Assembly (NCBI GenBank): GCA_016874795.1
Contig: VGTG01000015.1
Span: forward strand, 1-55,777
DNA from: Deltaproteobacteria bacterium
GTDB taxonomy: Bacteria; Desulfobacterota; Binatia; UBA12015
Length of the DNA: 55,777 nucleotides
Direction: 5' to 3'
Notes under the pieces: generated by a model
What the model saw: only the letters and a program-made list of their open reading frames with translations
The model's database searches: none
Told to the model about the DNA's origin: nothing
Translations under genes and position numbers: made by a program
Shown here: positions 23,149 through 38,643 of the stretch, one piece after another
Layout: every line of letters starts with the position of its first letter
How positions within the stretch are numbered: the first letter of the stretch is position 1

Positions 23149-23293
23149 GTGCGGAACGCTCTCCGGTCCGCGGAAAATTCGCATTCGCCGCCGGAAAGGG
23201 CCAGGCAAGCGTTCGCGCGCGATCCGCCTCAAGTCGGCCGGAGCCTTTGCCGATGTGGTGGGAGGCGCCGGCAAACCGGCGAGGGAGGGAAAC

Positions 23294-23848
23294 ATGCGAT
23301 TTCGGTCTACCGCTGTGCTCGTGGTGTCGTCCGCCGTCTTTCTGCTCGGCTCGCTCGGAACGGTGCGGGCACAAGAGATCCCGCAACCGCTCCTCGGCTT
23401 CTGCTGCAGCTGCGCCGCGCAGATCAAGTTCGTGCCCGATCCGGCCGCGCCGGATCTTCTGTCGGTCGGTGCGCGCTTCGTTCCGAACGTGGGTGCGATC
23501 ATCGATCCGTTCACCAACGGGATGACGTTCACTCTCGAGAACGCGAACGGCGTGATCTTCACCGAGACGATTCCGCCGTTCCAGTTCGTCGAAGCGACCT
23601 CGGGAAAGAAGTTCACGTACAAGAACCCCGCGGCAAAGACGGCCGGCGGCATCGCGAGCGTCGTGATCCAGGAGCGGAGCGACGCGATCGGCGGCTTCTC
23701 GATCGAGATGCGCGCCTACGGCGACCTTTCCGCCGCGACGCTCAGCAACATGGTCACATCGGTCGTGATCGGCGCCTCGCCGTTCTTCGACGTCGGCGAC
23801 TGGGAGCAGCGCGACAACGGCTGGCGCCGCAAGTTCCCGACACCGTAA
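23294..23848 (+). CDS. Secreted protein of unknown function
   Basis: A 184-residue protein with a signal peptide (AVLVVSSAVFLLGSLGTVRA, cleavage probably before QEIPQ). The mature N-terminus has three close cysteines (GFCCSCAAQ), and the rest looks rich in beta strands (TNGMTFTLENANGVIFTET). I do not recognise a family. The start ATG 23294 has a strong GGAGGG site six bases upstream, so it is a real gene. It lies between the NorQ-like and NorD-like genes on the opposite strand. It could be an unrelated insertion or a client of that machinery; the sequence does not decide. Confidence 0.75.
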   Translation: MRFRSTAVLVVSSAVFLLGSLGTVRAQEIPQPLLGFCCSCAAQIKFVPDPAAPDLLSVGARFVPNVGAIIDPFTNGMTFTLENANGVIFTETIPPFQFVEATSGKKFTYKNPAAKTAGGIASVVIQERSDAIGGFSIEMRAYGDLSAATLSNMVTSVVIGASPFFDVGDWEQRDNGWRRKFPTP

Positions 23849-23885
23849 CCGCGGCACGAGTGCCCATGACCGCACGCGATGCCAT

Positions 23886-23980
23886 CCGCGCGCAAGGCGC
23901 GCGGCCGAAGCGAAGCGAGCGGGGCGAGGCGGCCCCGTCGGGCTTTGCCCGATGGGGGGAAAGGGGCGGCGCCCCTCTCA
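23886..23980. repeat. Multi-hairpin repeat between convergent genes, copy A
   Basis: Three consecutive hairpins: CCGCGCGC-aag-GCGCGCGG (23886-23904), TCGGGC-ttt-GCCCGA, and AGGGGC-GGC-GCCCCT reaching the TGA of the NorQ-like gene. The same order recurs at 37329-37423 and 38548-38643, each time between two genes that end towards each other. A transcription terminator working on both strands, or a REP-like element, is likely. Confidence 0.65.
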
Positions 23981-24802
23981 AGCGAATAGCGCGGACACCA
24001 GCTCGCCGACGGAGCGGAGCATCTCCGGGTCGTCGGTGAGCGAGTTCGTCACCGCGACCGAGCAAGCGCGGCGCGGTGCGAGCCCGCGCGCGATGAGCTG
24101 TCCCGCGTAGACGAGAAGGCGCGTACTCACGCCCTCGCCGAGGCCGGCGCCGCGGAGATGGCGCACCTTCTCGCCGAGCGTCGCGAGCGTGAGAGCCGTG
24201 TCCGCGTCGACACCGCTCTCGTGCCGCACGATCTCCGCTTCGCGGTCGCGGGGCGGATAGTCGAAGTCGATGCTGACGAAGCGCTGCCGCGTCGAGTGCT
24301 TCAGGTCCTTCAGAACGCTCTGGTAGCCCGGGTTGTACGAGATCACGAGGAGGAAGTCCGGGTGCGCCTCCACGATCTCGCCCCGCTTGTCGATCGGTAG
24401 GATGCGACGGTGGTCGGTCAGCGGGTGGATCAGGACGATCGTGTCCTTGCGCGCTTCGACGACCTCGTCGAGGTAGCAGATCGATCCGCTGCGAACGGCC
24501 TGCGTGAGCGGGCCGTCGATCCACACGGTGTCGTCGCCCTGGATCAAATAGCGACCGACGAGGTCGGAGCCCGTCAGGTCCTCGTGGCAGGCGACCGTGA
24601 TGAGAGGCGGTACGCGCTCGCGTCGTGGCACCGAGCCGAGCAGGCGGTGCGCCATGAACTCGACGAAGCGCGTCTTCCCGCATCCCGTCGGACCCTTCAG
24701 CAGGACCGGGAGACGGCTCTCGTACGCCGCGGTGAAGATCTCGATCTCGTCGTGGATCGGGAGGTAGTAGGGCGCGTTCTCCGCCCCTGCGGCGACCGTC
24801 AT
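23978..24802 (-). CDS. NorQ/CbbQ-like MoxR AAA+ ATPase
   Basis: A 274-residue AAA+ ATPase. It has Walker A GPTGCGKT (37-44), Walker B ICYLDEV (108-114) and the NorQ/CbbQ features [16 protein letters not shown] and [16 protein letters not shown], plus a C-terminal CbbQ_C-like part ([17 protein letters not shown]). These ATPases act with NorD/CbbO vWA proteins to activate metalloenzymes. The likely partner is the NorD-like gene at 20092-23148, although an opposite-strand gene lies between. YqgE is 27 bases upstream on the same strand. The client enzyme is not in this window. Confidence 0.92.
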
Positions 24803-24829
24803 CGCGAGAGCGTGCCGAGCGTCGCCCGC

Positions 24830-25396
24830 TCAGTGGACGCCCGGCGCGGGCGCGATCGCGCTCGGCTCGACGCCGAGGCTCCGGATCGCGGCCTCCCAGA
24901 CCTTGTCGTGCGGCGTGTGGAAGATGAGCTCCTCGTCGACCGGCACCATCAGCCAAGCGGACGCGGTCAGCTCCGCGTTGAGCTGTCCCGGGCCCCAGCC
25001 CGCGTAGCCGAGAAGGAGGCGCGCGCGGTCCGGAGCGCACGAGCGCGGATCGCCGCCGAGGACGCTCTTCAGGTGCGTCTGCGAGCTCGACATGAAGATG
25101 CCGTCGCACACGGTCAGCGTATCGCCCTCGGCCGGCTGATCGCGGCAGAGGAGCCAGCCGCGCTCCTGCGAGACGGGCCCCCCCTCCCAAACGGTGAGCG
25201 GAACTTGCAGGTCCTCCTTGCCTTCGAGGACGAGCAGCTCCTTCACCGGAACGTCGAGCGGACGATTGACGATGAACCCGAGGGCTCCCTCGTCGCCATG
25301 GCGGCACAGAAGGACGACCGAACGATGAAAATTCGGATCGTCGAGCTGCGGCATCGCCAGCAGCAAGGTCGGTGCGATCCCTTCCTCGTTCGGCAT
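24830..25396 (-). CDS. YqgE/AlgH family protein
   Basis: A 188-residue DUF179 protein: LLLAMPQLDDPNFHRSVVLL near the start, GALGFIVNRPL, and LLLGYAGWGPGQLNAEL near residue 130. The family is widespread, is linked to alginate regulation in Pseudomonas, and has no settled biochemical activity. ATG 25396 is supported by AGGAGGTGA just upstream; the longer frame has no such site. It is probably cotranscribed with the NorQ-like gene. Confidence 0.92.
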   Translation of the reverse strand: MPNEEGIAPTLLLAMPQLDDPNFHRSVVLLCRHGDEGALGFIVNRPLDVPVKELLVLEGKEDLQVPLTVWEGGPVSQERGWLLCRDQPAEGDTLTVCDGIFMSSSQTHLKSVLGGDPRSCAPDRARLLLGYAGWGPGQLNAELTASAWLMVPVDEELIFHTPHDKVWEAAIRSLGVEPSAIAPAPGVH

Positions 25397-25471
25397 CGGT
25401 TCACCTCCTGCCCGCGTCAGGGTATCTCGCGCCCGGCTCGGGGACAATGGTGAAGATGTCCCTGCTAAAGA

Positions 25472-26674
25472 ATGCGGGTGTCGCAAACGCCACCGCACGA
25501 GCGCGTCAATCTCTGGGTCATCTGCGCGGCACAGTTCCTCACGCTCGCGGGCATGACCGCGGTGCTACCCCTCCTGCCGCTCTATCTCCAGCACATCGGC
25601 GTCGACGATCGCGACACGCTGCGGTACTGGACGGGCGCTCTCGGCTCCGCTCCGTTCGTGGTCGCGGTGTTCGCGACGCCGATCTGGGGATCGCTCGCGG
25701 ACCGCGTCGGTTACAAGCCGATGGTCGTGCGCTCGGTCGCGGGAATCGCGGTCGCGACCGTCGGCATGGGCTTCTCGTCTTCGCCCGCGGCGTTGCTCGG
25801 CTGGCGCGGCGTGCAAGGCGGGGTGAGCGGCGTCTTTCCTGCGGCCGTGGCGCTCCTCGCGGCCCTGACGCCGGAGCCGCGGGTCGGCCGTGCTCTCGCG
25901 ATCCTGCAGGCGGCTCGCTCGGGCGGCGCGCTGAGCGGTCCGCTCCTCGGCGGGCTTCTCGCGGACGTCATCGGGATCCGCGCGCTCTTCCTCGGCGTCG
26001 GCGGCAGCGCGGCTTTGATGAGCCTGATCTGCAGCCTCGTGATCGTCGAGCCCGCGCGTCAAGCGGATGCGACGCAGCAGCCGGAGATCCGCTGGCGCGA
26101 GCTTTTCCGGCATCGCGACCTCCTCGCGATGCTCGCCCTCGTGTTTCTCTTCCAGATCGTCGCGATGGCCTCGTGGCCGACGCTCGCGCTCTTCGTCGAG
26201 CAGCTCCATGTCGAGCGCGCGTCCGTCGCGACGATGACCGGGCTCGTCGTCTTCGCAGCAGGTCTTCCCTCGATGCTCGCGGCGACGCTCTGGGCCCGTG
26301 CGGTCGGCCGCTTCGGGATCGCGCGGCTCCTCGCGGTGTCGCTGATGGCGACGGGCATCACGAGCGCCGCGGTCGGTCTCGCGGACCGGATGGACGCGGT
26401 GCTCGCCCTGCGCGTGCTCTCCGGCCTCGCGATGGCGGGTTTCATCCCGCTCTCGTTCCAGTGGTTGAACGGGTTCGCGCCCGCGAACGCGCGCGGGCGC
26501 ATGGCGGGGATCGGCTCGACGGCGATGATGCTCGGCAACGTCGTCGGTCCGATCCTCGGAAGCTGGCTCTCCGTCCATGTGGGGCTCGGAGCGACGTTCT
26601 GGGTGCCGGGTGCTTCGCTCCTCGTCGTCGGCGTCGTCTTCTGGCTCTCGACGCTCGCGTCCGCGCGCGCGTGA
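25472..26674 (+). CDS. MFS transporter
   Basis: A 400-residue membrane protein with about twelve hydrophobic segments and the MFS signature between helices 2 and 3 (GSLADRVGYKPMVVRS). It resembles drug- or sugar-efflux members, but the substrate is unknown. ATG 25472 is used; GTG 25478 is an alternative. Its stop codon overlaps the GTG of the next gene (GTGA), so the two are translationally coupled. Confidence 0.9.
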   Translation: MRVSQTPPHERVNLWVICAAQFLTLAGMTAVLPLLPLYLQHIGVDDRDTLRYWTGALGSAPFVVAVFATPIWGSLADRVGYKPMVVRSVAGIAVATVGMGFSSSPAALLGWRGVQGGVSGVFPAAVALLAALTPEPRVGRALAILQAARSGGALSGPLLGGLLADVIGIRALFLGVGGSAALMSLICSLVIVEPARQADATQQPEIRWRELFRHRDLLAMLALVFLFQIVAMASWPTLALFVEQLHVERASVATMTGLVVFAAGLPSMLAATLWARAVGRFGIARLLAVSLMATGITSAAVGLADRMDAVLALRVLSGLAMAGFIPLSFQWLNGFAPANARGRMAGIGSTAMMLGNVVGPILGSWLSVHVGLGATFWVPGASLLVVGVVFWLSTLASARA

Positions 26675-27735
26675 AGAGATCGTCCCGGCTCGCGTTCTGG
26701 CGCCGTGTCGCGGCCCTCGTCGGCCTCGGCGTGATCGTCGCGTTCGTCGGGCTCGAGGCGAACCTGCGCCTTTTCGGCGGACCGATCGAGATCTTCAATC
26801 CGCTGAACGGCTTCCACGACGGCGACGCCCTTCTCGGCTGGCGTGGTCTCCCGAGCATCCAGCGCCGGTTTCATCGCGACGAGTTCGACGTGCTCGTCGT
26901 GCACGACGAGGACGGCTTCCGGCTTCCCGATCCGCCGCGACCCGCCGAAGCGCAGCGCAACCTCCTCGTCCTCGGCGACTCGATCGTCTGGGGCTGGGGC
27001 GTCGAGCAGGGCGAGGTCGTCACGGACCGCCTGCAGCGCGAGCTCGCCCCGGACGTCGCCGTGTTCAACCGCGGCGTCAACGCGTTCTCGACCGGGCAGG
27101 AGCTCCTGCTGCTGCAGGAGGAGGTCCAGCGGCGACGCTACGAAACCATCGTGGTCGTCGTCAGCCGGACCGACCTCGGCGACAACGCCGATCGGAAGGA
27201 GCATCGGCCCGGCTTCGACCTCGAAGGCGAGGCGCTCGTCCCGCGAAACCAGCCGGCGCCGTCCACGATGAAGAATCCCGTCGAGCGCTTCATCGACGAC
27301 CACAGCCGCGCCGTCCACTTCCTGAGCTGGCAGCTCGCGGCGTGGAAGAGCTTCTGGCGCGGGCCGAACTGGGTGCGCGAGGCCTTCCCCGAGGAGGATC
27401 CCGAAGCGCGCACGCTCCCCGGCTACGCCGTGACCGGTCGCCTGCTGCGCGAGATCGTCTCGGTCGGCGCAGCGCACGGTGCGCACGTCGTCCTCGCGTT
27501 CGCGACGACGGCGCTCGACACCGAGGAGAGCTGCCTCGACGCGGGGCTGCGCGAGCTCGTGCAGCAGGTCGCGCGCCTCACGAGTGCGGGCTTCGTCGAT
27601 CTCGCTGCGCCTCTGCGCGAAGCGGCGCGCGCCGGGACCGAGGTGCGCTTCCCGGTCGACGAGCACTGGAATCCGACCGGCCACCGTCTCGCCGCGGAAG
27701 CGCTCCTCCCCGCTCTCGCGAGCGAGACGAAATGA
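26671..27735 (+). CDS. SGNH/GDSL-type hydrolase, membrane-anchored
   Basis: A 354-residue protein with one N-terminal membrane helix (ALVGLGVIVAFVGLEANL) and an SGNH-hydrolase-like domain. Block I is LVLGDSIVWGWGV, block II/III lies around FNRGVNAFSTGQ, and block V DEHWNPTGH holds the usual Asp and His. It probably acts as an esterase or O-acyl hydrolase outside the inner membrane. The GTG start overlaps the stop of the MFS gene, suggesting linked roles in export and modification. The stop codon lies at the outer edge of an inverted repeat (27734-27898). Confidence 0.85.
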   Translation: MKRSSRLAFWRRVAALVGLGVIVAFVGLEANLRLFGGPIEIFNPLNGFHDGDALLGWRGLPSIQRRFHRDEFDVLVVHDEDGFRLPDPPRPAEAQRNLLVLGDSIVWGWGVEQGEVVTDRLQRELAPDVAVFNRGVNAFSTGQELLLLQEEVQRRRYETIVVVVSRTDLGDNADRKEHRPGFDLEGEALVPRNQPAPSTMKNPVERFIDDHSRAVHFLSWQLAAWKSFWRGPNWVREAFPEEDPEARTLPGYAVTGRLLREIVSVGAAHGAHVVLAFATTALDTEESCLDAGLRELVQQVARLTSAGFVDLAAPLREAARAGTEVRFPVDEHWNPTGHRLAAEALLPALASETK

Positions 27736-27898
27736 AGCTCGGATGTGAGATTCGCTGCTCCGGGCCCTACTTTATTGAGGTGGGCGCCGCGTGATCGCGT
27801 CGGGCTTCCCGCGCTAGCGCGGGCCTGTCCTCTAACGACCAGAGGTAGCTCCCCTTCCCATCGATGTAGGCGGAACGTTGAACTCACACCCGAGCTTC
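27734..27898. repeat. Region bounded by a 16-base inverted repeat
   Basis: GAAGCTCGGATGTGAG (27734-27749) pairs with CTCACACCCGAGCTTC (27883-27898) at 15 of 16 bases, 133 bases apart. Inside is a perfect palindrome, CCCGCGCTAGCGCGGG (27808-27823), and a smaller hairpin (CCTCT...AGAGG). The left arm overlaps the last base pairs of the SGNH gene. It could be a small non-autonomous element or a large terminator structure; only one copy is present here. No gene is visible between 27736 and 27948. Confidence 0.45.
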
Positions 27899-27948
27899 GG
27901 CGGGAGCCTATCACCGACGCTCGCGAGATCCTACGGGGGAAGACGCGT

Positions 27949-28371
27949 TCAACGCGCGGCGGGACGGAACTGCGGGAGCGTGATCTCCGGGCTCCGCTCC
28001 TCGAAGGTCACCTCGACCGGCATGCCGATCCGCAGCTCGTCGTGCGAGCAGCCGAGCACGTTGGTCGCCATGCGCGGCCCCTCCTCGAGCTGCACCACGA
28101 CGACCGCATAGGGAAGCTCATCGGCGAACGCCGGGTGATACTTCTGGTGCATCCAGTAGAAGCTGAATACCTCGCCACGGCCGGAGACGGGCGTCCACTC
28201 GCGCTCCGTCGACCAGCACTTGGGGCAGACCTCGCGCGCGGGGAAGCGGAGCTGGCCGCAGGAGCGACAGCGCTGCACGACGAGCTCGTGGTTGCGCGCC
28301 GCCGCGAAGAACGGCTCGAGCTCGGGCGTGATCCGCGGGAGGGGCTTCGCGACGGCGACTCGCTCGCTCAT
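27949..28371 (-). CDS. DUF35 Zn-ribbon / OB-fold acyl-CoA-binding protein
   Basis: A 140-residue protein with a rubredoxin-like zinc ribbon, CRSCG...CPKC (residues 35-52), and an OB-fold domain (GRGEVFSFYWMHQKYHPAF, YAVVVVQLEEGPRMATNVLG). DUF35 proteins bind acyl-CoA and form complexes with thiolase-like partners, as with ChsH2-type domains and Ltp2 aldolases in steroid side-chain degradation. The thiolase-like gene starts upstream and ends four bases before this ATG, matching such a complex. The precise substrate is unknown. Confidence 0.9.
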   Translation of the reverse strand: MSERVAVAKPLPRITPELEPFFAAARNHELVVQRCRSCGQLRFPAREVCPKCWSTEREWTPVSGRGEVFSFYWMHQKYHPAFADELPYAVVVVQLEEGPRMATNVLGCSHDELRIGMPVEVTFEERSPEITLPQFRPAAR

Positions 28372-28375
28372 CGGG

Positions 28376-29548
28376 CTAGGGCTCCTGGTCCAGGATCAAG
28401 CACGAGTGCGTCGAGAGGATGCCGCCGTTGCCGCTGACGAGGCACGGCCCGAGCCGCTCGAGCTGGCGCGCGCCGCCCTCGCCGCGGAGCTGGAGGATCG
28501 CCTCGCTGACCGGCGTCATGCCCCACATGTAGTAGGAAGAGAGCTGCCCGCCGCCGGTGTTGACGGGAAGCGAGCCGCCGGGACCGGTGCGCCCGTCCGC
28601 GACGAACGGTCCACCCTCGCCCTTCTCGCAGAAGCCGTAGTCCTCGAGCGTGACGAGCACCGTGAAGGTGTAGCAATCGTAGAGCTCGCAGAACGCGATG
28701 TCCTCGAGCGTCAAGCCCGCCATCGCGAAGGCGGTGCGCGAGGCGAGCCCCGCGCCGGAAGAGAGCGTCTCGAGCGGATCGCCGCCGGGATGTCCCTGCC
28801 CCATCCCGAGGAGGCGGACCGGCGGACGTCGCAGATCACGCGCACGCTCGGCGCTCGTCACGATGACGGCGACACCGCCGTTCGAGACGAGGCAGCAATC
28901 GAGGAGATGGAACGGCTCCACGACCCAGCGCGAAGCGTGGTAGTCCTCGAGCGAGAGCGGCGTGTCGCGAAGCTGAGCGAGCGGGTTCCCGCGCGCGAAA
29001 GCGCGCTGCGCGACCGCGATCGCACCGAGGTGATCCTGCGTCGTGCCGAAGCGGTGCATGTGCCGCTGCGTGACGAGCGCGTAGAGCGCGTTGACGCCGT
29101 ACTGGCCGTACGCAGCCGGGAGATCGCCTGCTTGCGAGTACGCGCTCGAAGAAGCCGAGCCGCCGCTGCCGTCGCGCTTCGGCGGCGCGAGCGGCGCGTC
29201 GGAGAACACGCAAGCGACGGTCGTCGCGAGGCCGGCCTCGATCGCGAGCGCCGCCTGCATGATCATCGCGCCGGCCGTGGCGCCGCCGAGGTTCATCGCC
29301 GCCGTCAAGCGCAGATCGCGAACCCCCATCGCCTGCTGCACGGCGAACGAGGCCATCGCCGAAGCGGGGCCCCACGTGAGACCCGGGTTCACGAGCAGGC
29401 CGTCGAGGTCCTTCCCTTCGAGACCGGCATCCTCGAGAGCACGCGCGACGGCTTCGACCGCGAAACCGACCGCGTTCTTGCCAAAGACTTTGCCCTGCTC
29501 GGTGACGCCGAGACCGGCGATCGACACGTCCGGAGTGCGGAGGGGCAC
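28376..29548 (-). CDS. Thiolase-like protein (Ltp/SCPx-type aldolase or transferase)
   Basis: A 390-residue thiolase-fold protein. The usual nucleophile site reads MNLGGATAGAMI with no cysteine, and the position of the thiolase GHP histidine reads SSYYMWG. FCELYDCYTF, typical of lipid-transfer-protein-type (Ltp) enzymes, is present. With a DUF35 gene immediately downstream, an Ltp2-like retro-aldol cleavage of a CoA thioester is more likely than ordinary thiolysis; this is inference. The start is GTG 29548; the 186-bp element ends nine bases upstream of it, so the native upstream region may be displaced. Confidence 0.85.
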   Translation of the reverse strand: MPLRTPDVSIAGLGVTEQGKVFGKNAVGFAVEAVARALEDAGLEGKDLDGLLVNPGLTWGPASAMASFAVQQAMGVRDLRLTAAMNLGGATAGAMIMQAALAIEAGLATTVACVFSDAPLAPPKRDGSGGSASSSAYSQAGDLPAAYGQYGVNALYALVTQRHMHRFGTTQDHLGAIAVAQRAFARGNPLAQLRDTPLSLEDYHASRWVVEPFHLLDCCLVSNGGVAVIVTSAERARDLRRPPVRLLGMGQGHPGGDPLETLSSGAGLASRTAFAMAGLTLEDIAFCELYDCYTFTVLVTLEDYGFCEKGEGGPFVADGRTGPGGSLPVNTGGGQLSSYYMWGMTPVSEAILQLRGEGGARQLERLGPCLVSGNGGILSTHSCLILDQEP

Positions 29549-29557
29549 GTGGGGCTT

Positions 29558-29743
29558 CTAGCCTGCATTTCTCACCAGATCCCTACTGCGGCGGCCGATA
29601 GCACCGAATCTTCGCGAGCTTCTCCCTCCGGGCTCCTCGACGTACTGTTCAAGTACGCCTGCGTCGCCCTCCGGTCCGAGGCTCGCGAATCTTCGGCACT
29701 CTCGACCGCCTCGCGACGTGATCTGGTGAGAAATGCAGGCTAG
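29558..29743. mobile_element. 186-bp inverted-repeat element, family 1, copy 2 (MITE-like)
   Basis: Identical to 9478-9663 except T at 29627. It has the same perfect 24-base terminal inverted repeats and CTAG ends. Bases outside the two CTAGs (CTT on the left, CAG on the right) do not match each other, so no longer target duplication is seen. It occupies most of the gap between the thiolase-like gene and the divergent PQQ lipoprotein gene. Confidence 0.8.
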
Positions 29744-29818
29744 CAGGCGTCGCGGCTGATCCCACGGTCAGGAGGAAGCCGCTGGACAGCTCCGGGCGAA
29801 TCGAGCACCTCTGGGAAA

Positions 29819-31771
29819 ATGCAGCGACCGCCCCTCGGTTCCATCGTCGCGCTCCTGCTTCTCGTCGTTTCCCTCGCCGCGTGCTCGGATGGAGCGAGCG
29901 ACGGCGACCCCGTCGACCCGGGCCCGTCGGCGACGGAGTGGACGACGTACGGCGGGAGCCTGTCGCGCACGTTCTACAACTCGGCCGCGACGGAGGTGAC
30001 GCGCGAGAATGCGGCGAAGCTCGTGCCGCTCTGGCGCTTCACGACCGGTGCCGTCGTGACGGCCTCGCCGATCGTCGCCGATGTCGACCTTCCCGGCGAG
30101 GGCAGGACCCAGGTCGTCTACACGCCGTCGTGGGACGGTCACTTCTACGCGCTCCGGGGCGCGGACGGGACGCTCGTCTGGTCGCACCGCTTCAAGCCGC
30201 ATCCGGGGGCCTCGTACCCGCAGGCTGCCTCCGCTTCGGTCGAGGTGATCGACGGCAGGCGCGTCGTGTTCGTCGGAAGCGGGATGACGATGCATTCGTT
30301 CGACGCCGCGACGGGTGAGCTCCTCTGGGAGTTCGACGCCGGCACCGGCTGCACGAACTGCGACTTCCTCGCCGAGCGGAACGAGATCCTCTCCTCGGCA
30401 GCGGTGTTCGAGGACGTCGTCTACTTCGGCATGGACGTCAACGACTTCGGCGACGGCAAGGGCGGGGTCTACGCCGTCGACGCGAAGGACGGCACGCTCG
30501 AGTGGTACTTCGACCTCGTCACGGGAGCGACGTGCCATCCCGATCCGTCCGACGCCGTGCGCCGCTTCGACGGCTACCACACGACCGACGAGCTCGGGCT
30601 TCCGTCGGACTTCTTCTCGACGCGCGAGGGATGCGATTTCGATCGCACCGGAATCGCTTGCGGCAACGTCTGGTCGTCGGTCGCGATCGATCCGGAGCGC
30701 CGGCTCCTCTACACCGCTTCGAGCAACTGCGACACCGATGACGACCCGGCGACGCGCGAGCCGCCGCTGATGCCGCCCTACGAGGAGGCGCTCTTCGCGC
30801 TGCACCTCGACACGGGCGCGCCCGCGTGGCGCTGGCGCCCGCGTGAGGTCGACAACGACGATCTCGCGATCGGCGCGGTGCCGAACCTCTTCGAGACCGA
30901 GATCGCGGGCGAGGCGCGCGAGGTCGTCGGCATCGGCGTCAAGGACGGTACCTACTACCTCCTCGATCGCGACGGCGTGAACGAGCTTACGGGCGCGATC
31001 GAGCCGTACTGGCAGACGAACACCGTCCCGGGCGGCGACTTCGGCGGCATCATCGCGAGTGCTTCGGTCGGCGAGGACAAGGTCTTCTTCAGCACCGCGA
31101 TCGGGACCGACATCACGAACCCGCAGAAGCCGTCCGCGTGGGCGCTCGACGCGCGCACGGGCGGGGTCGTCTGGACGAACGCCGAAGCTCTCCCGAGCTA
31201 CGCGCCGACGAGCGCGATCCCCGGCGTCGTCTTCATGGGCTCGATCGGCGGAGCGGTCTTCGTCTACGACAGCGACACGGGCAAGCTCTTGAACCGCCTT
31301 TCGGGCGTCGGACCGATGTCGTCCCCTGCGGTCGTGGTCGGAAACCGCGTCTTCTTCGGCTCCGGGACCGGTGCGCGCGGCGGCTCGCCGGCCGCGATCG
31401 CGTTCCAGACCTCCCTGATCCCCAGTCCGATCTCGGCGTTCTGCGTTTCTGGCAGCGAGGGCTGCCCGGAGCAGGGCACGTGCAACGACGGCAACCAGTG
31501 CACGACGGACGTACGCGACATGGGAGGCGCCTGCGTCAACGAGGCGCTCGAGGACGGCACCGAGTGCGCCGTCGGCGTGCTTCCCGGCGAGTGCCGCCAA
31601 GGCATCTGTCTCCTCGACGAGGTGATCTGCGACGACCAGAACCAGTGCACGGACGACATCGCGACGCAGAGCGGCTGCCGCTTCCAGATCATCGCGGACG
31701 GGACGCCGTGCGTGGTCCGCGACGACGCCGGCCAGTGCGTCGGCGGTGCGTGCGTTCCGCTCGCCGGCTAG
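29819..31771 (+). CDS. PQQ-binding-like beta-propeller lipoprotein with Cys-rich tail
   Basis: A 650-residue lipoprotein: signal sequence with lipobox LAAC (modified Cys near residue 22). Residues 40-540 hold repeated propeller blades of the PQQ-dehydrogenase type (TPSWDGHFYALRGADGTLVWS, VYAVDAKDGTLEW, ALDARTGGVVW). The tail has two Cys-rich repeats around CNDGNQCTTD and CDDQNQCTDD, common in secreted deltaproteobacterial proteins. Whether it binds PQQ is open; it could instead be an assembly or binding propeller. ATG 29819 starts the signal sequence; no strong ribosome site is seen. It is divergent from the thiolase-like gene. Confidence 0.83.
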   Translation: MQRPPLGSIVALLLLVVSLAACSDGASDGDPVDPGPSATEWTTYGGSLSRTFYNSAATEVTRENAAKLVPLWRFTTGAVVTASPIVADVDLPGEGRTQVVYTPSWDGHFYALRGADGTLVWSHRFKPHPGASYPQAASASVEVIDGRRVVFVGSGMTMHSFDAATGELLWEFDAGTGCTNCDFLAERNEILSSAAVFEDVVYFGMDVNDFGDGKGGVYAVDAKDGTLEWYFDLVTGATCHPDPSDAVRRFDGYHTTDELGLPSDFFSTREGCDFDRTGIACGNVWSSVAIDPERRLLYTASSNCDTDDDPATREPPLMPPYEEALFALHLDTGAPAWRWRPREVDNDDLAIGAVPNLFETEIAGEAREVVGIGVKDGTYYLLDRDGVNELTGAIEPYWQTNTVPGGDFGGIIASASVGEDKVFFSTAIGTDITNPQKPSAWALDARTGGVVWTNAEALPSYAPTSAIPGVVFMGSIGGAVFVYDSDTGKLLNRLSGVGPMSSPAVVVGNRVFFGSGTGARGGSPAAIAFQTSLIPSPISAFCVSGSEGCPEQGTCNDGNQCTTDVRDMGGACVNEALEDGTECAVGVLPGECRQGICLLDEVICDDQNQCTDDIATQSGCRFQIIADGTPCVVRDDAGQCVGGACVPLAG

Positions 31772-31789
31772 GCTCTCGCCTCGGAGCCG

Positions 31790-32686: not shown

Positions 32687-32692
32687 ACCACC

Positions 32693-34813
32693 ATGCCCAG
32701 GCCTTCGACCGCGCGGGCGACCGGACGACTCCGGACCGCTCTTGCACTCGCGGTCCTGGCCCTCATCGTCGGCTGGGTCGAGCTCCCGTTCCTGCTCGAC
32801 CGAGCGATCGTCGTCGAGCGCGACGCGCTCTCCTCGATCCTCCCGATGCGCGCCTTCCTCGCACGCGCGCTCGCCGCGGGCGAGTGGCCGATGTGGAATC
32901 CCGCACCGGTTCTCGGAAAGCCGTTTCTCGCCGAATGGCAGACCGGGCTCTTCTATCCGCCGACCGCGCTTCTACTCGTTCCGCCGTTCTCGCGCGGCTT
33001 CAATCTTCTCTTCACGTTCCACTACGCGTGGAGCGCGCTCGGCGCGTTCCTCTGGCTCCGTGTCGTCGGCGTCACACGGCTCGGGGCGCTCCTCGGCGCG
33101 GTCGTGTGGAGCTGCGGCGGCGCGCTCGTCTCGCTCGGTCATCTCCTGAACCACCTGATGGCCGTCGCGTGGCTTCCCTGGGTGCTCTGGGCGTGGGCGC
33201 GACCGCACCGCGTCCGGCATCGCATCGTCGTAGCGGCGGCGATGCTGTCTTTCGCTCTCTTCACGGGAAGTCCCGAGATGACGCTCCTGATCGCGGGGCT
33301 GCTCGTCGTCACGAGCCGCGATCCTCGCTCGCTCCTGGTGCCGCCGCTCGCCGCCGGTCTCGCCGCGGCGCAGCTCGTTCCGGTGTGGGTCTACCTCGGC
33401 CAGACGGAGCGCGGTCTGCACGGCATGTCCGCGGCGAGCGTGATGGCGTACTCGACGTCGCTCGGACGTATCGCCGGCTTCGTCGATCCGAGCGCGGCGG
33501 ACTCCACCGCGTTCCTGCCGACGCTCTACGTCGGCGTGGTGCCGGTCGCGCTCGCGCTCGCGGGACTGTGGCTCGCGCCGACGTCGCGGCGTCTCGCGGC
33601 GCTGCTCGTCGCGATCGTCTTGGTCGGCCTCGCGCTCGGAGCGAACGGCGGGCTGCTGCCGCTCCTGTACGAGTGGCTCCCCGGCGTCGAGCTCTTGCGC
33701 TACCCGGAGAAGCTTCTCGTCGGCGTGCACGCGCTGATTGCGTTCGGCGCCGCCTACGGGCTCGCTGAGGTCGGGCGGCGCCTGCCGGGGACGGCCGGCG
33801 TCGTCGCGGCGGCGCTGCTCGTCGCGATCGCGTGCGCGGATCTCATCCATGCGAACCGCGGCGTCCTGTTCACGCTGCCGCCGGCGAGCGTCTTCCAAGC
33901 GCCTCCGATCGCACGAGCGATGGAGGAGGACGCGCACGCCGCGGGCTCTTCGGCCGTCGAGCCGCCGCCGCGGTACTACGCGAACGCCGTGCACGGTCCG
34001 CGCGCTTCGTCTCCGGCGGAGGTCGCCGGTCTCGACCGCGCGATCCTCTTCGCTTCCACCGGCGAGCTCTACGGCCTCGGGAACGTCAACACGCCGGCTT
34101 CGCTCAATCTGGCGTCGCACGAGCGGCTGCAGATGGCGCTCGAGCGCGCTCCGCGGGACCGAGCGCTCGCCGTTCTCGCGGCGCTCGGCACGCGTTGGGT
34201 CACCTCCTTCTCTCCGATCGCCGAAGGCGACGGGATCCGCGAGGTCCCGTTGCCGAGGACGCGCTTCGGTGCCCGTCTCTACGAGCTGACCCGCGCTTCC
34301 GCGCACGCTTTCGTCGCGGAGCAGGTCACGGGCGCGGCGAGCGACCGCGCCGCGCTCGAGCGATTCGTCGCCTCCGCGGACGCGACCGGGTCACGCCTCG
34401 CGGTTCTCGAGGGAGTCGAAGGCGCGGCGGAGTACCGCGCACCGCGGCAGCGAGACGTCCGCTTCGTCGAGAGCGGACCGGACCATCTCGCCCTCGAGGT
34501 CGTGATCGACGCAGCCGGGCTCGTCATCGTGAACGACACCTACCTCCCCGGCTGGCGAGCGACGATCGACGGGAATCCGGCCGCGATCGAGCGGGTGAAC
34601 GGGCTCGTGCGCGGCGTCTGGGTTCCCGCCGGCCGCCATCGCGTCGAGATGCGCTATCTCGCGCCCGGGCTCGCCGTCGGAAGCGCGATCTCCCTGTCGG
34701 TGCTGGCGGCGATCGGTCTCGTCCTGGCGATCGTGCCGCGCCGCGCGCGCGCGCGGCTCGCCCGGATCGGTCGTCCCGAACCCGCTCTCGCCGGAAGCTA
34801 CCGCGAGCCGTAG
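32693..34813 (+). CDS. YfhO-like multi-pass membrane protein
   Basis: A 706-residue protein with about ten membrane helices and a large periplasmic region, as in the YfhO / GT-C glycosyltransferase-like group. The early loop VERDALSSILPMRAF with the later WNPAPVLGKPFLAEWQTGLF is typical. The C-terminal part (NDTYLPGWRATIDG and VWVPAGRHRVEMRY) matches the conserved domain before the last helix. YfhO proteins are implicated in sugar modification of cell-envelope polymers. Its last 16 bases overlap the end of the convergent dacA-like gene. Confidence 0.85.
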   Translation: MPRPSTARATGRLRTALALAVLALIVGWVELPFLLDRAIVVERDALSSILPMRAFLARALAAGEWPMWNPAPVLGKPFLAEWQTGLFYPPTALLLVPPFSRGFNLLFTFHYAWSALGAFLWLRVVGVTRLGALLGAVVWSCGGALVSLGHLLNHLMAVAWLPWVLWAWARPHRVRHRIVVAAAMLSFALFTGSPEMTLLIAGLLVVTSRDPRSLLVPPLAAGLAAAQLVPVWVYLGQTERGLHGMSAASVMAYSTSLGRIAGFVDPSAADSTAFLPTLYVGVVPVALALAGLWLAPTSRRLAALLVAIVLVGLALGANGGLLPLLYEWLPGVELLRYPEKLLVGVHALIAFGAAYGLAEVGRRLPGTAGVVAAALLVAIACADLIHANRGVLFTLPPASVFQAPPIARAMEEDAHAAGSSAVEPPPRYYANAVHGPRASSPAEVAGLDRAILFASTGELYGLGNVNTPASLNLASHERLQMALERAPRDRALAVLAALGTRWVTSFSPIAEGDGIREVPLPRTRFGARLYELTRASAHAFVAEQVTGAASDRAALERFVASADATGSRLAVLEGVEGAAEYRAPRQRDVRFVESGPDHLALEVVIDAAGLVIVNDTYLPGWRATIDGNPAAIERVNGLVRGVWVPAGRHRVEMRYLAPGLAVGSAISLSVLAAIGLVLAIVPRRARARLARIGRPEPALAGSYREP

Positions 34814-36057
34814 CGCGACGAGCCGCTGCCGCAGCCGGCGCCCGAGCACCCGCGACGGACGCCGCTCGAATCCCAGGCCTGCGCCGCAACGGACAGCGGT
34901 GGAGCCGCGGGCGGGTCGGTCGAGATCGCGCGCGGAGCGGTCGACGACGCGGGGAGCGAGTGCACCGCCGGTCTCGCCGGAGCCGCGGAGCGCGACCGAG
35001 CCGTGGCACTCGCCGCAAGCGAACGCGCGGGCGCGCGCGCCGTGACGGTTCGCGCCGGAGCGCTCGCTGGAACGGGACGCGCTGGCGCAGTCGCGGCGAC
35101 GGTGCGGGCATAGCTCGCCTTCGAAACGGCCCTCGGCGGGGTCAGATCCTCGGCGACGCGCACGGTCTCGACCGCGGCCGGAGCCTTCGGTGCAGCCGGA
35201 GGAGGCGTGCGCACGCGGGCCATCTGCACGTTCGGCCAGGTGTCGCCTCCTTCGCCGCGAAGCGCCCACTCGAGAAGCTTCCGCGTGTCGCCCCACATGT
35301 CGTTCGCCCCGAGGACGACGACGATCACCTCGCGATCACCGAGCGAAGCCGCACCGGCGAAGCAACGTCCTGCGGCGCGGGTGAAGCCGGTCTTGCCGAT
35401 CACGGGGACGAAGTAGCCGCTGAGCAGCCGGTTCTTCGTGTGAAGAGAAACGGGCTTCGGCTTGCTGCCCTGGATCACGATCGAGCGCGACTTGGTCTCG
35501 ACGACGCGGCGGAAGCCGGGCACGTCGAGCGCGTCGCGCAGGATCATGCCGAGGTCGCGTGCCGTCGAAAGGTGCTGCGAGTTCGGAAGGCCGGAAGGAT
35601 TCCGGAACGTCGAGTTGCGAGCGCCCGCGCGCGCGGCGCGCGCGTTCATGCGAGCGGCAAACTGATCGACGGTCCCACCGAGACCCTCGGCGACGACGAC
35701 GGCGCCGTCGTTCGCCGACTTGAGCATCAGAGCATAGAGGAGATCGCGCAGCGCGACGCGCTGGCCGGCGCGCAGGTAGAGCTTCGACGGCGCCTGCGAC
35801 GCGGCATACGGGCTGACCTGCATCTCGTCGTCGAGACGTCCGCTCTCGAGAGCGATCATCGTCGTCAGGATCTTGGTCGTGCTCGCGGGCGCACGGCGCA
35901 CGTCGGGATTCTTCGACCAGATCAGCTCGCCCGTCGCGGCGTCCATCAGGACGGCCGCCTGCGCCGTGACGTTCGGCGCAGCGGCTGCCGCCGCGTCGAC
36001 CATCGCCAGGACACCGATCAGCGCCCAGCCCATCCGCCGTCCGCTACTCACCGCCAC
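34798..36057 (-). CDS. D-alanyl-D-alanine carboxypeptidase (PBP5/DacA-like)
   Basis: A serine peptidase of about 419 residues that trims the last D-Ala from peptidoglycan stem peptides. The three catalytic motifs are present: SxxK in ASTTKILT, SxN in KSANDGA and KTG in IGKTGFT. A signal segment (MGWALIGVLAMVDAAAAAA) precedes it. The last 130 residues are Ala/Pro/Arg-rich and end GCSGAGCGSGSSRYGSR, without the usual amphipathic membrane anchor. The start is uncertain among GTG 36057, GTG 36051 and ATG 36033; GA-rich sequence favours 36057. The divergent gene encodes an L,D-transpeptidase, which uses the tetrapeptides this enzyme makes. Confidence 0.88.
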   Translation of the reverse strand: MAVSSGRRMGWALIGVLAMVDAAAAAAPNVTAQAAVLMDAATGELIWSKNPDVRRAPASTTKILTTMIALESGRLDDEMQVSPYAASQAPSKLYLRAGQRVALRDLLYALMLKSANDGAVVVAEGLGGTVDQFAARMNARAARAGARNSTFRNPSGLPNSQHLSTARDLGMILRDALDVPGFRRVVETKSRSIVIQGSKPKPVSLHTKNRLLSGYFVPVIGKTGFTRAAGRCFAGAASLGDREVIVVVLGANDMWGDTRKLLEWALRGEGGDTWPNVQMARVRTPPPAAPKAPAAVETVRVAEDLTPPRAVSKASYARTVAATAPARPVPASAPARTVTARAPARSLAASATARSRSAAPARPAVHSLPASSTAPRAISTDPPAAPPLSVAAQAWDSSGVRRGCSGAGCGSGSSRYGSR

Positions 36058-36072
36058 CCTTCCCCTCTCCAC

Positions 36073-36102
36073 CTCCCGGCGCTCCGGCTCCCGGCGCTCC
36101 GG
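36073..36102. repeat. Tandem 15-bp duplication upstream of dacA-like gene
   Basis: CTCCCGGCGCTCCGG occurs twice in direct tandem. It lies in the presumed untranslated leader of the dacA-like gene, 16 bases from its start. It may be a slippage product; no function is evident. Confidence 0.7.
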
Positions 36103-36157
36103 GACCCCAACTCTTATCCGACCTGACTTCCCTTGAAAAGTCGCAGGGCTGCCATCC

Positions 36158-36186
36158 TTGTCTGTTTGCCGGGGCGCCGATACAAA
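36158..36186 (+). promoter_or_regulatory. Candidate promoter of the L,D-transpeptidase gene
   Basis: TTGTCT (36158-36163), a 17-base spacer and TACAAA (36181-36186). In-frame GTG codons follow at 36193 and 36196, so translation may begin at the 5' end of the mRNA. Confidence 0.4.
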
Positions 36187-36192
36187 GTCCGG

Positions 36193-37314
36193 GTGGTGTG
36201 GGGTGTGCCGAGCAGGTGGTGGGGACGGATCGGCGCCGGCGGCGCCGCCCTGGTGGTCGGCCTTCTGATCGCCGGAGTCGAGGTCGGCCGCGGCCGGGAG
36301 TGGACCGACGCGGACTGGGGCCGCTATGGAGGCGAGACGTACACCTTCGTCGCCCCGGGCGACGCGCCCCCCGACCAGGTGCGGACCGTCATCGGGCAGA
36401 TGGAGACGTACACGCCCACGACGGGCGACACGTTCTACGACATCGGCCGCTACTTCGACCTCGGGTACAACGAGATCGTCGCGGCGAATCCCGACAGCGA
36501 CGTCTGGATCCCGGCGCAGGACGGCAAGGACATCCAGATCCCGCGTGAATGGGTCCTGCCCTGCTGCAACTTCGACGGGTTGATCGTCAACATCCCCGAG
36601 ATGCGGGTGTACTACTACCCGAAGCGAGCGAAGGGCGCGCCGCGCACCGTGATCACCTATCCCGTCGGTCTCGGGCGAACCGACTGGAAGACGCCGACGG
36701 GCAAGTTCAAGATCACCGAGAAGACGAAGGACCCGACCTGGGTCATCCCCGAGTCGATCCGCCAGGAGCGCATCGCCGACAAGGGCTTCAGCGAGAAGTC
36801 GATTCCCGGTGGCAGCCCGGACAACCCGATGGGGCGCTACCGCATGCGCGTGTCGCTCGACATCTACTCGTTCCACGGAACCAACATCCCGTGGGGCGTC
36901 GGCATGTTCGTGAGCCACGGCTGCATCCGGTTCTACCCCGAAGACATCGAGCGGCTCTTCCCGACGGTGCCGACGGGAACGCCGGGCGAGTTCATCTACC
37001 AGACCGTCAAGGTCGGAACGAGGAACGACCGCATCTTCGTCGAGGTGCACGAGGACATCTACAGCATGCAGCCGGGCCGCTGGCGCACGACGATCAACGA
37101 GCTGCAAAAGCGCGGATTGCTCGACCGCGTCGACGAGGAGAAGCTGCACCAGGCCGTGTACGAATCGCGAGGCATCCCCGTCGACGTGACCCGGGAGACG
37201 CTTCCCCCGAGCACGAACGAGGCGGGAGGCCCCGGCATCCACCCGCTGCCCGCGACGCAGCTCGACGCCGACGACTCGTACCCCTCGCGCAACCGCCCCG
37301 CGACCGGCGGCTGA
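36193..37314 (+). CDS. L,D-transpeptidase (YkuD family), membrane-anchored
   Basis: A protein of about 373 residues that would cross-link or modify peptidoglycan. A membrane or signal helix (IGAGGAALVVGLLIAGVEV) is followed by a LysM-like peptidoglycan-binding segment (TTGDTFYDIGRYF ... IVAANPDSDVWIPAQ). Then comes the YkuD catalytic domain with SFHGTNIPWG and the active-site SHGCIR. The start is uncertain: TTG 36133 is in frame but lies upstream of the likely promoter, so GTG 36193 is preferred. It is divergent from the dacA-like gene, and a second, shorter L,D-transpeptidase lies at 40071-40643. Confidence 0.9.
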   Translation: MVWGVPSRWWGRIGAGGAALVVGLLIAGVEVGRGREWTDADWGRYGGETYTFVAPGDAPPDQVRTVIGQMETYTPTTGDTFYDIGRYFDLGYNEIVAANPDSDVWIPAQDGKDIQIPREWVLPCCNFDGLIVNIPEMRVYYYPKRAKGAPRTVITYPVGLGRTDWKTPTGKFKITEKTKDPTWVIPESIRQERIADKGFSEKSIPGGSPDNPMGRYRMRVSLDIYSFHGTNIPWGVGMFVSHGCIRFYPEDIERLFPTVPTGTPGEFIYQTVKVGTRNDRIFVEVHEDIYSMQPGRWRTTINELQKRGLLDRVDEEKLHQAVYESRGIPVDVTRETLPPSTNEAGGPGIHPLPATQLDADDSYPSRNRPATGG

Positions 37315-37328
37315 ACGCACAGAGACCT

Positions 37329-37423
37329 CCGCGCGCTGCGCGCTCGGCCGAGCGGCAGCGAGCCGGGTGAGGAGGCGCAGCTTAGGCTTTGCCGCGTGGA
37401 GGAGAGGGGCGGCGCCCCTCTCC
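37329..37423. repeat. Multi-hairpin repeat between convergent genes, copy B
   Basis: Begins with a GC-rich palindromic part (CCGCGCGC, then GCTCGGCCGAGC). It continues through a GGC-TTT-GCC core and ends in a perfect 10-bp stem: GGAGAGGGGC (37401-37410), loop GGC, then the complementary GCCCCTCTCC (37414-37423). It lies between the ends of the L,D-transpeptidase and HTH-like genes. Confidence 0.65.
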
Positions 37424-37428
37424 TGCGA

Positions 37429-37821
37429 TCAGTGCGCGGCTGCTGCCTCTTCGAGCGGGCTCGGCGGCAGCGGGACGACGTTCGCCCGCTGTGCCCGCCA
37501 GCGGTGCAAGCCCTGGCGGATGTAGTCCGGGTTCATGTCGACGATCTGGCAGATGTTCTCGAACGAGAACAGCCAGCGCTTGTCGGTCGACATGATCCAC
37601 TCGTACGACTCCGCGAAGAGCTGCTTCCCGCGCATGTCGTTCGTGTGGGCGTACTTCTGGAAGCAGTCGATCGCGTCCTCGAGAACCGCAAGCATCAGCC
37701 GGCGCTCGCGATCGAACCCGGCTTCCTTCCGGAAGAAGGAGAAGAACTGGCCGGGTAAGAGGACGTCCGGCTCGAAGAGTCCCCCCGTCCTATCCTGCAT
37801 TGCGGCCCCCCGAGTTCGCAT
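37429..37821 (-). CDS. Small protein of unknown function, possible HTH
   Basis: A 130-residue soluble protein. The last third (FSFENICQIVDMNPDYIRQG then LHRWR) has the helix-turn-helix-like rhythm of a DNA-binding or adaptor motif. The N-terminal part contains RERRLMLAVLEDAIDCFQKY. I recall similar small proteins of unknown function in deltaproteobacteria, but cannot name a family. ATG 37821 is preferred because AGGAGG stands four bases upstream; ATG 37824 and ATG 37800 are alternatives. It is divergent from the small membrane protein at 38090. Confidence 0.7.
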   Translation of the reverse strand: MRTRGAAMQDRTGGLFEPDVLLPGQFFSFFRKEAGFDRERRLMLAVLEDAIDCFQKYAHTNDMRGKQLFAESYEWIMSTDKRWLFSFENICQIVDMNPDYIRQGLHRWRAQRANVVPLPPSPLEEAAAAH

Positions 37822-38089
37822 CATCCCTCCTGTCGTCCAACGCGTACCTCCACCCCTTCCACGGCCGCGTACCCCTCGTCCGCGGCATCCCCCGAGGCGG
37901 CGGACGCTAACGCGGCCCGCACGGCCCCGTGAAATGAATTCCCCTGTTTCCTACCATGAGAATGACTTATCTTCCATCGCAGGCACGCTTGCCTGCTTCG
38001 CGAAGCCGGTCCGACTGAGCTATACGCGACGCGAATTCGTCCCGAACTCGTCCGTCCGCAGCAACGAAGAAGAACAAGAAGAGGCAGCC
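37822..38089. other. Divergent intergenic region
   Basis: These 268 bases lie between two divergent small genes and include an unusually AT-rich patch (about 37930-37985) and the perfect palindrome GCTTCGCGAAGC (37995-38006), followed by GCTATACG. Promoters for both genes are expected here. I could not fix -35/-10 pairs with confidence. Confidence 0.4.
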
Positions 38090-38521
38090 ATGGCCGAACA
38101 GTCCGCGTCAAGCAATCACTCCGCCGGAGGCGGAAGCCACATCGGAGCCATCGTCGGCTGGGGATCGATGGCGATCGCCACCATCGTGTTCATCTGGTTC
38201 ATCATGACGCAGCTCGCGGTCGGATGGGAAGAACGCGGTGACGAAGCCCTGAGGCTGGTCAAGAAGTGGAAGGGTCCGGGGATGAGCTACAACCTCTCCG
38301 ACCAGGCGATCGCGGTCGGCAACGACGCGCGCGCGAAGGGCCGCTTCATCGGCCAGTTCTCCTGGGCCGCGACGCAGGAGGAAGGTCCGCTCTACAAGGT
38401 CGAGCTGATCTGGAAGGAAGACAGCGTCACGAAGAAGGCAACCTGGGAGGTCAATCTCAAGGACGGCTCCGTGACGGCAAAGGGAGCCGACGCCGAAGCG
38501 TTCATGAAGCCCGTCGGCTAG
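38090..38521 (+). CDS. Small single-pass membrane protein of unknown function
   Basis: A 143-residue protein. A Ser/Gly-rich cytoplasmic head precedes one membrane helix (IVGWGSMAIATIVFIWFIM, about residues 22-40). A soluble domain of about 95 residues then ends in beta-strand-like sequence (LYKVELIWKEDSVTKKATW). No family is recognised. ATG 38090 follows a GAAGAGGC ribosome-site-like stretch. The gene is flanked downstream by multi-hairpin repeat copy C. Confidence 0.72.
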   Translation: MAEQSASSNHSAGGGSHIGAIVGWGSMAIATIVFIWFIMTQLAVGWEERGDEALRLVKKWKGPGMSYNLSDQAIAVGNDARAKGRFIGQFSWAATQEEGPLYKVELIWKEDSVTKKATWEVNLKDGSVTAKGADAEAFMKPVG

Positions 38522-38547
38522 TCCGCCCGACCGAAGGCGCGGACCCT

Positions 38548-38643
38548 CCGCGCGCGTAGCGCGCGGCCGAGCGGAGAGCGAGCGCACGAGTGGAGAAGGC
38601 GTGGCTTTGCGACGCCTTCGGCGAGGGGGCGGCGCCCCCTCGC
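38548..38643. repeat. Multi-hairpin repeat between convergent genes, copy C
   Basis: CCGCGCGC-gta-GCGCGCGG (38548-38566), then AAGGCGT-ggctttgcg-ACGCCTT, then a perfect 10-bp stem: GCGAGGGGGC (38621-38630), loop GGC, and GCCCCCTCGC (38634-38643). The last stem touches the TGA of the glutamate-cysteine ligase gene. Confidence 0.65.

What the first reader, a model, noticed from the sequence alone, without database searches (positions are those of the whole stretch)
23886..38643. Three-copy multi-hairpin repeat found only between convergent genes
Copies at 23886-23980, 37329-37423 and 38548-38643 share the same ordered hairpins and all lie between two genes that end towards each other, directly against the minus-strand stop codon. 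The last stem has different bases in the copies (GGAGAGGGGC versus GCGAGGGGGC, loop GGC conserved), yet pairs perfectly in two copies and with one mismatch in the third. That compensating change argues for a selected RNA or DNA structure, such as a two-way terminator lacking T-runs.
Basis: partly seen in the sequence, partly recalled or inferred. Interest (0 to 1): 0.62.

Follow-up and report, generated by a model that had tools for sequence, protein, structure and literature searches.

The report
Mobile hairpin repeat at gene ends
A roughly 100-base DNA repeat that can fold into three hairpins has been copied more than a hundred times into one bacterial genome, nearly always against the ends of genes; it resembles the known REP repeats and looks like a mobile element rather than a standard stop signal for transcription.

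Summary
The three copies are real and belong to a dispersed family: 116 matches in the genome; 18 in 800 kb sampled outside the window. Compensatory change is strong: 25 of 29 pairs change on both sides in 92 copies, covariation 0.366 against 0.122 shuffled. 'Only between convergent genes' fails genome-wide: of 73 scorable loci 35 are convergent, 37 co-directional, 1 divergent. The rule is 'at gene 3' ends', often abutting a stop codon that the element sometimes supplies. The models match 7 of 148 genomes of the class (probably Binatia), in two families, and none of the three congeners; none was seen at 10 of 10 orthologous loci in one congener. So it behaves as a non-autonomous, REP-like mobile element rather than a conserved terminator. 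It lacks the 20-40 bp length and GTAG/CGTC tags of described REPs, and no transposase gene examined is flanked by it. A RAYT-like transposase family is expanded in four of the seven genomes, but undetected in two. Termination or mRNA stabilisation is plausible and untested. Verdict: new variant of a known kind.

The parts
23880..23980 (+). copy 1 of the three-hairpin element
   Evidence: R1 64.3 bits, E 6e-7 in an 856-kb search
23886..23904 (.). copy 1 hairpin H1, stem 8, loop AAG
23933..23957 (.). copy 1 hairpin H2, CCCCGTCGGGC-TTT-GCCCGATGGGG
23958..23980 (.). copy 1 hairpin H3 region, loop GGC, one A.C mismatch; overlaps the minus-strand stop TGA (23978-23980)
   Evidence: not in the minimum-energy fold of the + strand
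37323..37424 (+). copy 2 of the element
   Evidence: R1 60.5 bits, E 2.2e-6
37329..37347 (.). copy 2 hairpin H1, one mismatch
   Evidence: not in the minimum-energy fold
37402..37422 (.). copy 2 hairpin H3, GAGAGGGGC-GGC-GCCCCTCTC perfect
38542..38644 (+). copy 3 of the element
   Evidence: R1 109.6 bits, E 1.1e-13
38548..38566 (.). copy 3 hairpin H1, loop GTA
38595..38619 (.). copy 3 hairpin H2, loop TTT, one mismatch
38621..38643 (.). copy 3 hairpin H3, GCGAGGGGGC-GGC-GCCCCCTCGC perfect; next to the stop TGA of 38644-40011
23978..24802 (-). AAA_5/CbbQ_C protein; ends one residue earlier than in G001 and G002, at the element
38644..40011 (-). GCS2 glutamate-cysteine ligase family protein; ends five residues earlier than in G001, G002 and G003, at the element
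23315..23848 (+). gene converging on copy 1, no Pfam match
36193..37314 (+). L,D-transpeptidase (YkuD) gene converging on copy 2
37429..37800 (-). gene converging on copy 2; its stop lies at the same place in the orthologues, so it is not cut by the element
38168..38521 (+). gene converging on copy 3, no Pfam match

Best explanation
It is a non-autonomous, dispersed, REP-like palindromic element of about 100-121 bp: H1, a linker (CCGAGC..GCGAGCGG), H2, H3. Shown: many copies in the genome; no match in the congeners, also not at the orthologous sites looked at; position at gene 3' ends; three hairpins whose stems vary with compensation; at two window sites the neighbouring protein is shorter than in congeners and its stop abuts or overlaps the element. 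Inferred: the single-stranded hairpins are what the copying machinery recognises; insertions survive mainly where they hit the very end of a gene (median convergent and co-directional gaps are about 25 nt); once there the element is transcribed as a hairpin at the mRNA 3' end, where it may block 3' exonucleases or help end transcription from both sides. The copying enzyme is not established; a RAYT-like Y1 transposase acting in trans is the leading candidate in two lineages.
For: Copy number: 116 matches at E <= 0.01, with 150 of 23101 candidates scored; 52 by plain DNA similarity. Structure: 25 copies, 42 both-side cells against 10.8 shuffled; 92 copies, 371 against 118; distinct stems, counted outward from the loop. 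Placement: 35 convergent, 37 co-directional, 1 divergent of 73 loci against 115/518/119 of 752 gaps; H3 end within -3..5 nt of the facing stop in 35 of 49. In G032, G006, G010 and G025: 32 convergent, 17 co-directional, 0 divergent of 49 copies with both neighbours called; 2 more at edges, 1 inside a gene call; copies picked by score, tandems not collapsed. Mobility: 7 of 148 class genomes, two families, 0 of 3 congeners; no element seen at 10 of 10 loci with syntenic flanking genes in 735 kb of G001. Stop supply: GCS2 shorter than in 3 of 3 congeners, CbbQ than in 2 of 2; in G032 genes facing H3 end in TAG/TAA in 23 of 24, against 7 of 17 gene ends of the same loci that face no element (by subtraction; TGA 1/24 against 10/17, p 1.5e-4). 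Extra H2-H3 units with the same junction at 7 loci.
Against: No target-site duplication or clean empty site could be read: the gaps of the congeners are too diverged, and the one closer pair (G032/G052, flanks 95% and 88%) has unrelated sequence in place of the element. Only 2 of 5 genes whose stop lies within 10 nt of H3 and that have an orthologue are shortened. No mobilising gene was found linked in cis. Loss from three congeners instead of gain in G000 is not excluded. The class-wide searches scored only 27 candidates a genome with stricter filters, so weak or divergent copies may be missed.
Confidence: 0.78

Rival explanations
1. A bidirectional transcription terminator without U-tract, kept by selection at convergent and co-directional gene ends.
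For: 3'-end location, near absence from divergent gaps, structure conserved, strong H3. In window 22000-41999 T-tract terminator-like sites are no more frequent than in shuffles, 9 against 8.0, so this genome may use other signals.
Against: Roughly 140 copies against some 5,700 genes by extrapolation; orthologous pairs in G001 lack it; patchy taxonomy; a fixed order of three hairpins is not needed for termination; no T-run in 93 of 93 copies.
Confidence: 0.25
2. A REP/RAYT-type system: the RAYT-like Y1 transposases of these genomes move the element in trans.
For: Subfamily matches (fragments included, 19 candidates scored at most) in G000 19, G025 19, G032 12, G052 12, all with elements; a hit of 130 bits or more in 4 of 7 element genomes against 6 of 141 others, Fisher p 3.5e-4; the two His of HxH and a Tyr invariant in 11 of 11 aligned (catalytic role recalled); two short pieces in G005.
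Against: G006 and G010 have dozens of elements and no match; G018 and G043 have the transposase without a match to the element; none of 13 transposase loci examined is flanked by a whole element (one H1-like fragment at L039). Three of the four positive genomes are one genus, so the p value overstates independence; the 130-bit line was drawn after seeing the table.
Confidence: 0.35
3. The compensated stems are made by mutation alone: quasipalindrome correction and local conversion keep arms matched without selection for structure.
For: H2 differs between loci but looks the same in the tandem units of one locus, e.g. C22:11968-12201.
Against: Recurrent loops (H1 GNA in 83 of 117, H2 TTT or TTC in 77 of 97) and one hairpin order in two families suggest that the hairpins themselves matter; common descent explains part of this.
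Confidence: 0.3
4. A retained small RNA or protein-binding DNA site (supercoiling, gyrase, nucleoid protein) rather than a selfish repeat.
For: Linker positions CCGAGC and GCGAGCGG are over 85% conserved; REPs and BIMEs are described as protein binding sites (start of abstract of PMC2817692 in a listing).
Against: No match in congeners; the linker as a whole (0.82) is no more conserved than H3 (0.79-0.83) and less than H1 (0.96); no direct evidence.
Confidence: 0.1

Closest known systems
REP sequences, GTAG and CGTC superfamilies (Di Nocera et al. 2013, PMC3733652: abstract and the sections on CGTC families, genome distribution and transposases read)
   Same: Dispersed extragenic palindromes, high copy, patchy between species; mostly between convergent and unidirectional ORFs, close to 3' ends; GTAG ends often supply the stop codon of the neighbour; the CGTC class has no linked transposase.
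   Different: Here about 100-121 bp with three different hairpins in fixed order, not 20-40 bp; no GTAG or CGTC tag next to the stems; another taxon.
REPINs / RAYT system (PMC3116915, search listing only; REPtrons as described in PMC3733652)
   Same: Non-autonomous palindromic units; RAYT-like Y1 transposases expanded in four host genomes.
   Different: Three unequal hairpins; the 13 transposase loci examined are not flanked by whole elements; two hosts with many copies have no detected transposase of this family.
E. coli REPs within 15 nt of a stop codon that lower translation (as told in PMC12306157, passages read; original work not read)
   Same: Strong hairpin directly downstream of a stop codon.
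   Different: Effect on translation not tested here; the close spacing applies to 35 of 49 H3 ends that face a stop.
U-less terminators (recalled, no call)
   Same: Strong hairpin at gene ends.
   Different: Dispersal and absence from congeners are unlike a housekeeping terminator.

Membership tests
REP (tagged superfamilies) | Dispersed, extragenic, palindromic, high copy number | tested here: met
   116 matches; 10 of 118 hits with sequence overlap a gene call
REP (tagged superfamilies) | Located at 3' ends, convergent and unidirectional gaps | tested here: met
   35 convergent, 37 co-directional, 1 divergent of 73 loci
REP (tagged superfamilies) | 20-40 bp unit | tested here: not met
   Aligned unit about 103 bp in G000; repeated stretch about 121 bp in G032
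REP (tagged superfamilies) | Unpaired GTAG or CGTC tag at one end | tested here: not met
   Within 10 nt of H1 or H3: GTAG in 7 and CGTC in at most 4 of 88 G000 copies; neither in 18 G032 copies, where CTAG stands at H3 in 9. The far left end of the G032 element, beyond those 10 nt, was only looked at by eye
REPIN/RAYT | RAYT gene in the genome | tested here: inconclusive
   Expanded in 4 of 7 element genomes, pieces in 1, none in 2
REPIN/RAYT | RAYT gene flanked by the repeats | tested here: not met
   13 transposase loci with up to about 1.5 kb flanks (10 of 13 in G000, one each of G025, G032, G052): one partial H1-like match
REPIN/RAYT | Transposase binds and cleaves the repeat as single strand | not testable with these tools
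   needs protein
Intrinsic terminator | GC hairpin followed by T-run | tested here: not met
   Longest T-run next to H3 is 1 in 38, 2 in 50, 3 in 5 of 93 copies
Terminator of any kind | Ends transcription | not testable with these tools
   no RNA data
MITE | Terminal inverted repeats and target-site duplication | tested here: inconclusive
   CTAG at both ends in a few G032 copies by eye; no clean empty site
Rfam families | Match above gathering score | tested here: not met
   0 matches in the window

The most novel reading that the evidence does not exclude
A new class of single-strand-mobilised bacterial element: three unequal hairpins around a linker, moved in trans by a RAYT-like enzyme that recognises hairpin shape more than stem sequence, so that the middle stem can change freely as long as it pairs, and which inserts at CTAG/TGA-type sites so that its ends hand stop codons to the neighbouring genes.
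Probability: 0.2. Interest if true: 0.65.

Novelty: new variant of a known kind. Interest (0 to 1): 0.45.

Why it matters
It extends REP-like elements to another lineage with an architecture (three hairpins in fixed order, a middle stem that varies but stays paired) that separates structure from sequence, and it gives a natural set of paralogous stems for asking whether compensatory change needs selection. It also warns that compensated hairpins at convergent gene ends need not be terminators.

Tried and rejected
Rejected: exclusivity to convergent gaps; a known RNA family; a relative of copy 3 on recorded plasmids or phages (no match); a recurrent neighbouring gene as mobiliser (the largest group has 7 entries, some of them the same locus twice, mostly 35-43% identical and not identified further; most other groups are one locus counted twice or more).

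Led nowhere: target-site duplication by comparison with congeners (gaps too diverged; two of the printouts were cut at 700 bases) and with G052 (other sequence at the site); a second cross-genome query gave only partial flank matches.

In one search, of 140 copies 43 were dropped for H2, 9 for H3 and 23 for H1 because the anchoring rule failed or arms differed in length; some H1 stems there are out of register by a base, so H1 covariation is better judged, where each H1 pair has at most 3 both-side cells. In one search loci under 50 bits, at edges, overlapping a gene call or within 400 bp of the previous one were dropped before the count of 73; the background gaps include those that hold elements. 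Genes come from my own codon-usage caller, trained on G000 and used for the other genomes too, not from an annotation; starts may be wrong. The 800-kb sample is the first 40 kb of each of the 20 largest contigs other than the window's. The phylum search drew 395 genomes evenly, scored 10 candidates each, and matched G000 alone.
Full report
What is there. The three window copies align over about 103 bases with three hairpins in the same order. Folded alone they are only a little more stable than shuffles (z -1.5 to -3.1), and the best folds of copies 1 and 2 on the + strand do not contain all three hairpins. In this roughly 70% GC window folding energy is weak evidence; the comparative evidence is what counts.

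Family. A DNA search with copy 3 gave 52 matches in the genome of the window (6.27 Mb, 360 contigs). A covariance model from 25 copies, the window's three included (R1), gave 116 matches at E <= 0.01, with 150 of 23101 first-look candidates scored. In 800 kb taken without regard to the repeat 18 matches reached E < 0.01, tandem pieces counted; the window has three more. Several subfamilies coexist, differing in H2 and H3.

Covariation. On 25 copies 11 of 29 pairs had changes on both sides, 42 cells against 10.8 in shuffles. On 92 copies from the window's and six other genomes (80 loci chosen by me) 25 of 29 pairs had them, 371 cells against 118, score 0.366 against 0.122 shuffled and at most 0.107 for slid partners. 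That alignment is fitted to the structure and leans towards it, and related copies inflate such scores. A count without it, outward from the loop on distinct stems, agrees: H2 position 5, 54 of 55 paired against 26.8 shuffled; H2 position 10, 52 of 55 against 23.1; H3 position 8, 31 of 33 against 16.8. H2 is the least conserved in sequence (mean majority base 0.63-0.68), the linker 0.82, H3 0.79-0.83, H1 0.96. Loops recur: H1 GNA in 83 of 117, H2 TTT or TTC in 77 of 97, H3 GGC in 74 of 131. GNA loops are very stable in DNA hairpins (recalled; one search gave listings only). Tandem H2-H3 units within a locus look alike in H2 while loci differ, so local homogenisation also acts and selection is not the only possible cause of matched arms.

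Placement. With genes called by codon usage, hits were classified. Of 73 loci with two usable neighbours 35 are convergent, 37 co-directional, 1 divergent; background gaps are 115, 518 and 119 of 752 (convergent odds ratio 5.1, p 7.5e-10; divergent 0.07, p 1.7e-4). Against gaps of at least 100 bp the odds ratios are 5.5 and 0.02. Before collapsing tandems, both ends face stops in 35 of 76 copies, H1 alone in 25, H3 alone in 14, neither in 2; where H3 faces a stop it lies -3 to 5 nt away in 35 of 49, and where it faces a start it is also often within 10 nt. In four other genomes the copies examined give 32 convergent, 17 co-directional, 0 divergent.

Distribution. R1 and the broader R2 match the same 7 of 148 genomes of the class, in two families, and none of the three other genomes of the window's genus (27 candidates scored a genome). 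Three of the seven correspond to named assemblies through equal coordinates, scores, contig numbers or lengths: VBKG01 (G025), VGTK01 (G010) and JAIEPK01 (G006), the last titled Candidatus Binatia bacterium, the others Deltaproteobacteria bacterium. I take the class to be Binatia; this rests on that one label. In 395 genomes drawn from the phylum only the window's matched.

Mobility. For 10 loci (11 copies) both flanking proteins lie close together in a 735-kb stretch of the congener G001; no element is seen there, and the models match nothing in G001. Copy 3 ends the GCS2 protein after ...ENTAY, where three congeners continue for five residues; copy 1 ends the CbbQ protein one residue early against two congeners; copy 2 and two further genes with a stop within 10 nt of H3 show no shortening. 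In G032 the repeated stretch is about 121 bp and its right end mostly reads GATCTAG, GATCTAA or a variant: 23 of 24 genes facing H3 end in TAG or TAA, against 7 of 17 gene ends of the same loci that face no element. At C8:76158-76389 two copies in tandem lie where the matched protein ends of G001 are 13 nt apart. Seven loci share an extra H2-H3 unit with one junction sequence. No clean empty site was found, so gain is favoured but loss in congeners is not excluded.

Mobiliser. The window's genome has 13 Y1_Tnp matches. A profile of the RAYT-like subfamily gives 19 matches in G000 (12 of them full-length or nearly so), 19 in G025, 12 in G032, 12 in G052, two pieces in G005, none in G006 and G010; at most 19 candidates a genome were scored. 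Outside the seven, 6 of 141 genomes have a hit of at least 130 bits, G018 and G043 with several. A plain Fisher test gives 3.5e-4, but few lineages are independent and the threshold was set afterwards. The 13 transposase loci examined are not flanked by whole elements. I give a RAYT-in-trans mechanism 0.35.

Literature. REPs of the GTAG and CGTC superfamilies have the same placement, GTAG ends can supply stop codons, and the CGTC class lacks a linked transposase (PMC3733652, abstract and three sections). REPs fewer than 16 nt from a stop can lower translation in E. coli (PMC12306157, passages). Searches aimed at Binatota repeats showed no description of this element in the listings (10 of 106, 8 of 30 and 12 of 563 papers shown); I read none of those papers, and subscription journals are not held.

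Verdict. A tag-less, three-hairpin REP-like family: it works like a REP in placement and dispersal, but fails two features that define the described REP superfamilies, so I do not file it as a member of them.

Noticed in passing
G000 C207, C118, C123, C49, C136, C65, C9, C21, C176, C50, C162, C22 (several in L032-L040): About 12 full-length RAYT-like Y1 transposase paralogues in one genome (those aligned 62-74% identical to the first), some with shared upstream sequence (CGCCCGATTCAA, then a TTGAC-like box).
   Followed up: partly
G000 C8:33540, C20:39508, C22:11968-12201, C22:48350, C32:43693, C73:1-160, C73:11750: Extra H2-H3 units of about 66 bp in tandem with the same junction TGCGATCAACCGTGGA at these 7 loci; C167:12419 and C290:3684 have units at the same spacing, junction not looked at.
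   Followed up: partly
L039:1991-2051: H1-like partial element (29.6 bits, E 0.0016) just upstream of a RAYT-like gene.
   Followed up: partly
G000 C3:21479-21788: Three weak copies in tandem, period about 102 bp, in a gap called divergent.
   Followed up: no
L167, L172, L177, L178 (G006, G010): A subfamily with a quite different H1 (CCACCCGC...GAGTGG) but a similar linker, H2 and H3.
   Followed up: partly
G000 C54, C73, C161, C164, C260, C286, C307: Several contigs begin within 50 bases of a copy, so the draft assembly is probably broken by the repeat and the copy number understated.
   Followed up: no
G052:C189, joined loci L371/L366, about 2933-3261: Where G032 has the element, G052 has about 330 nt of other GC-rich sequence that seems to hold its own inverted repeat.
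   Followed up: no
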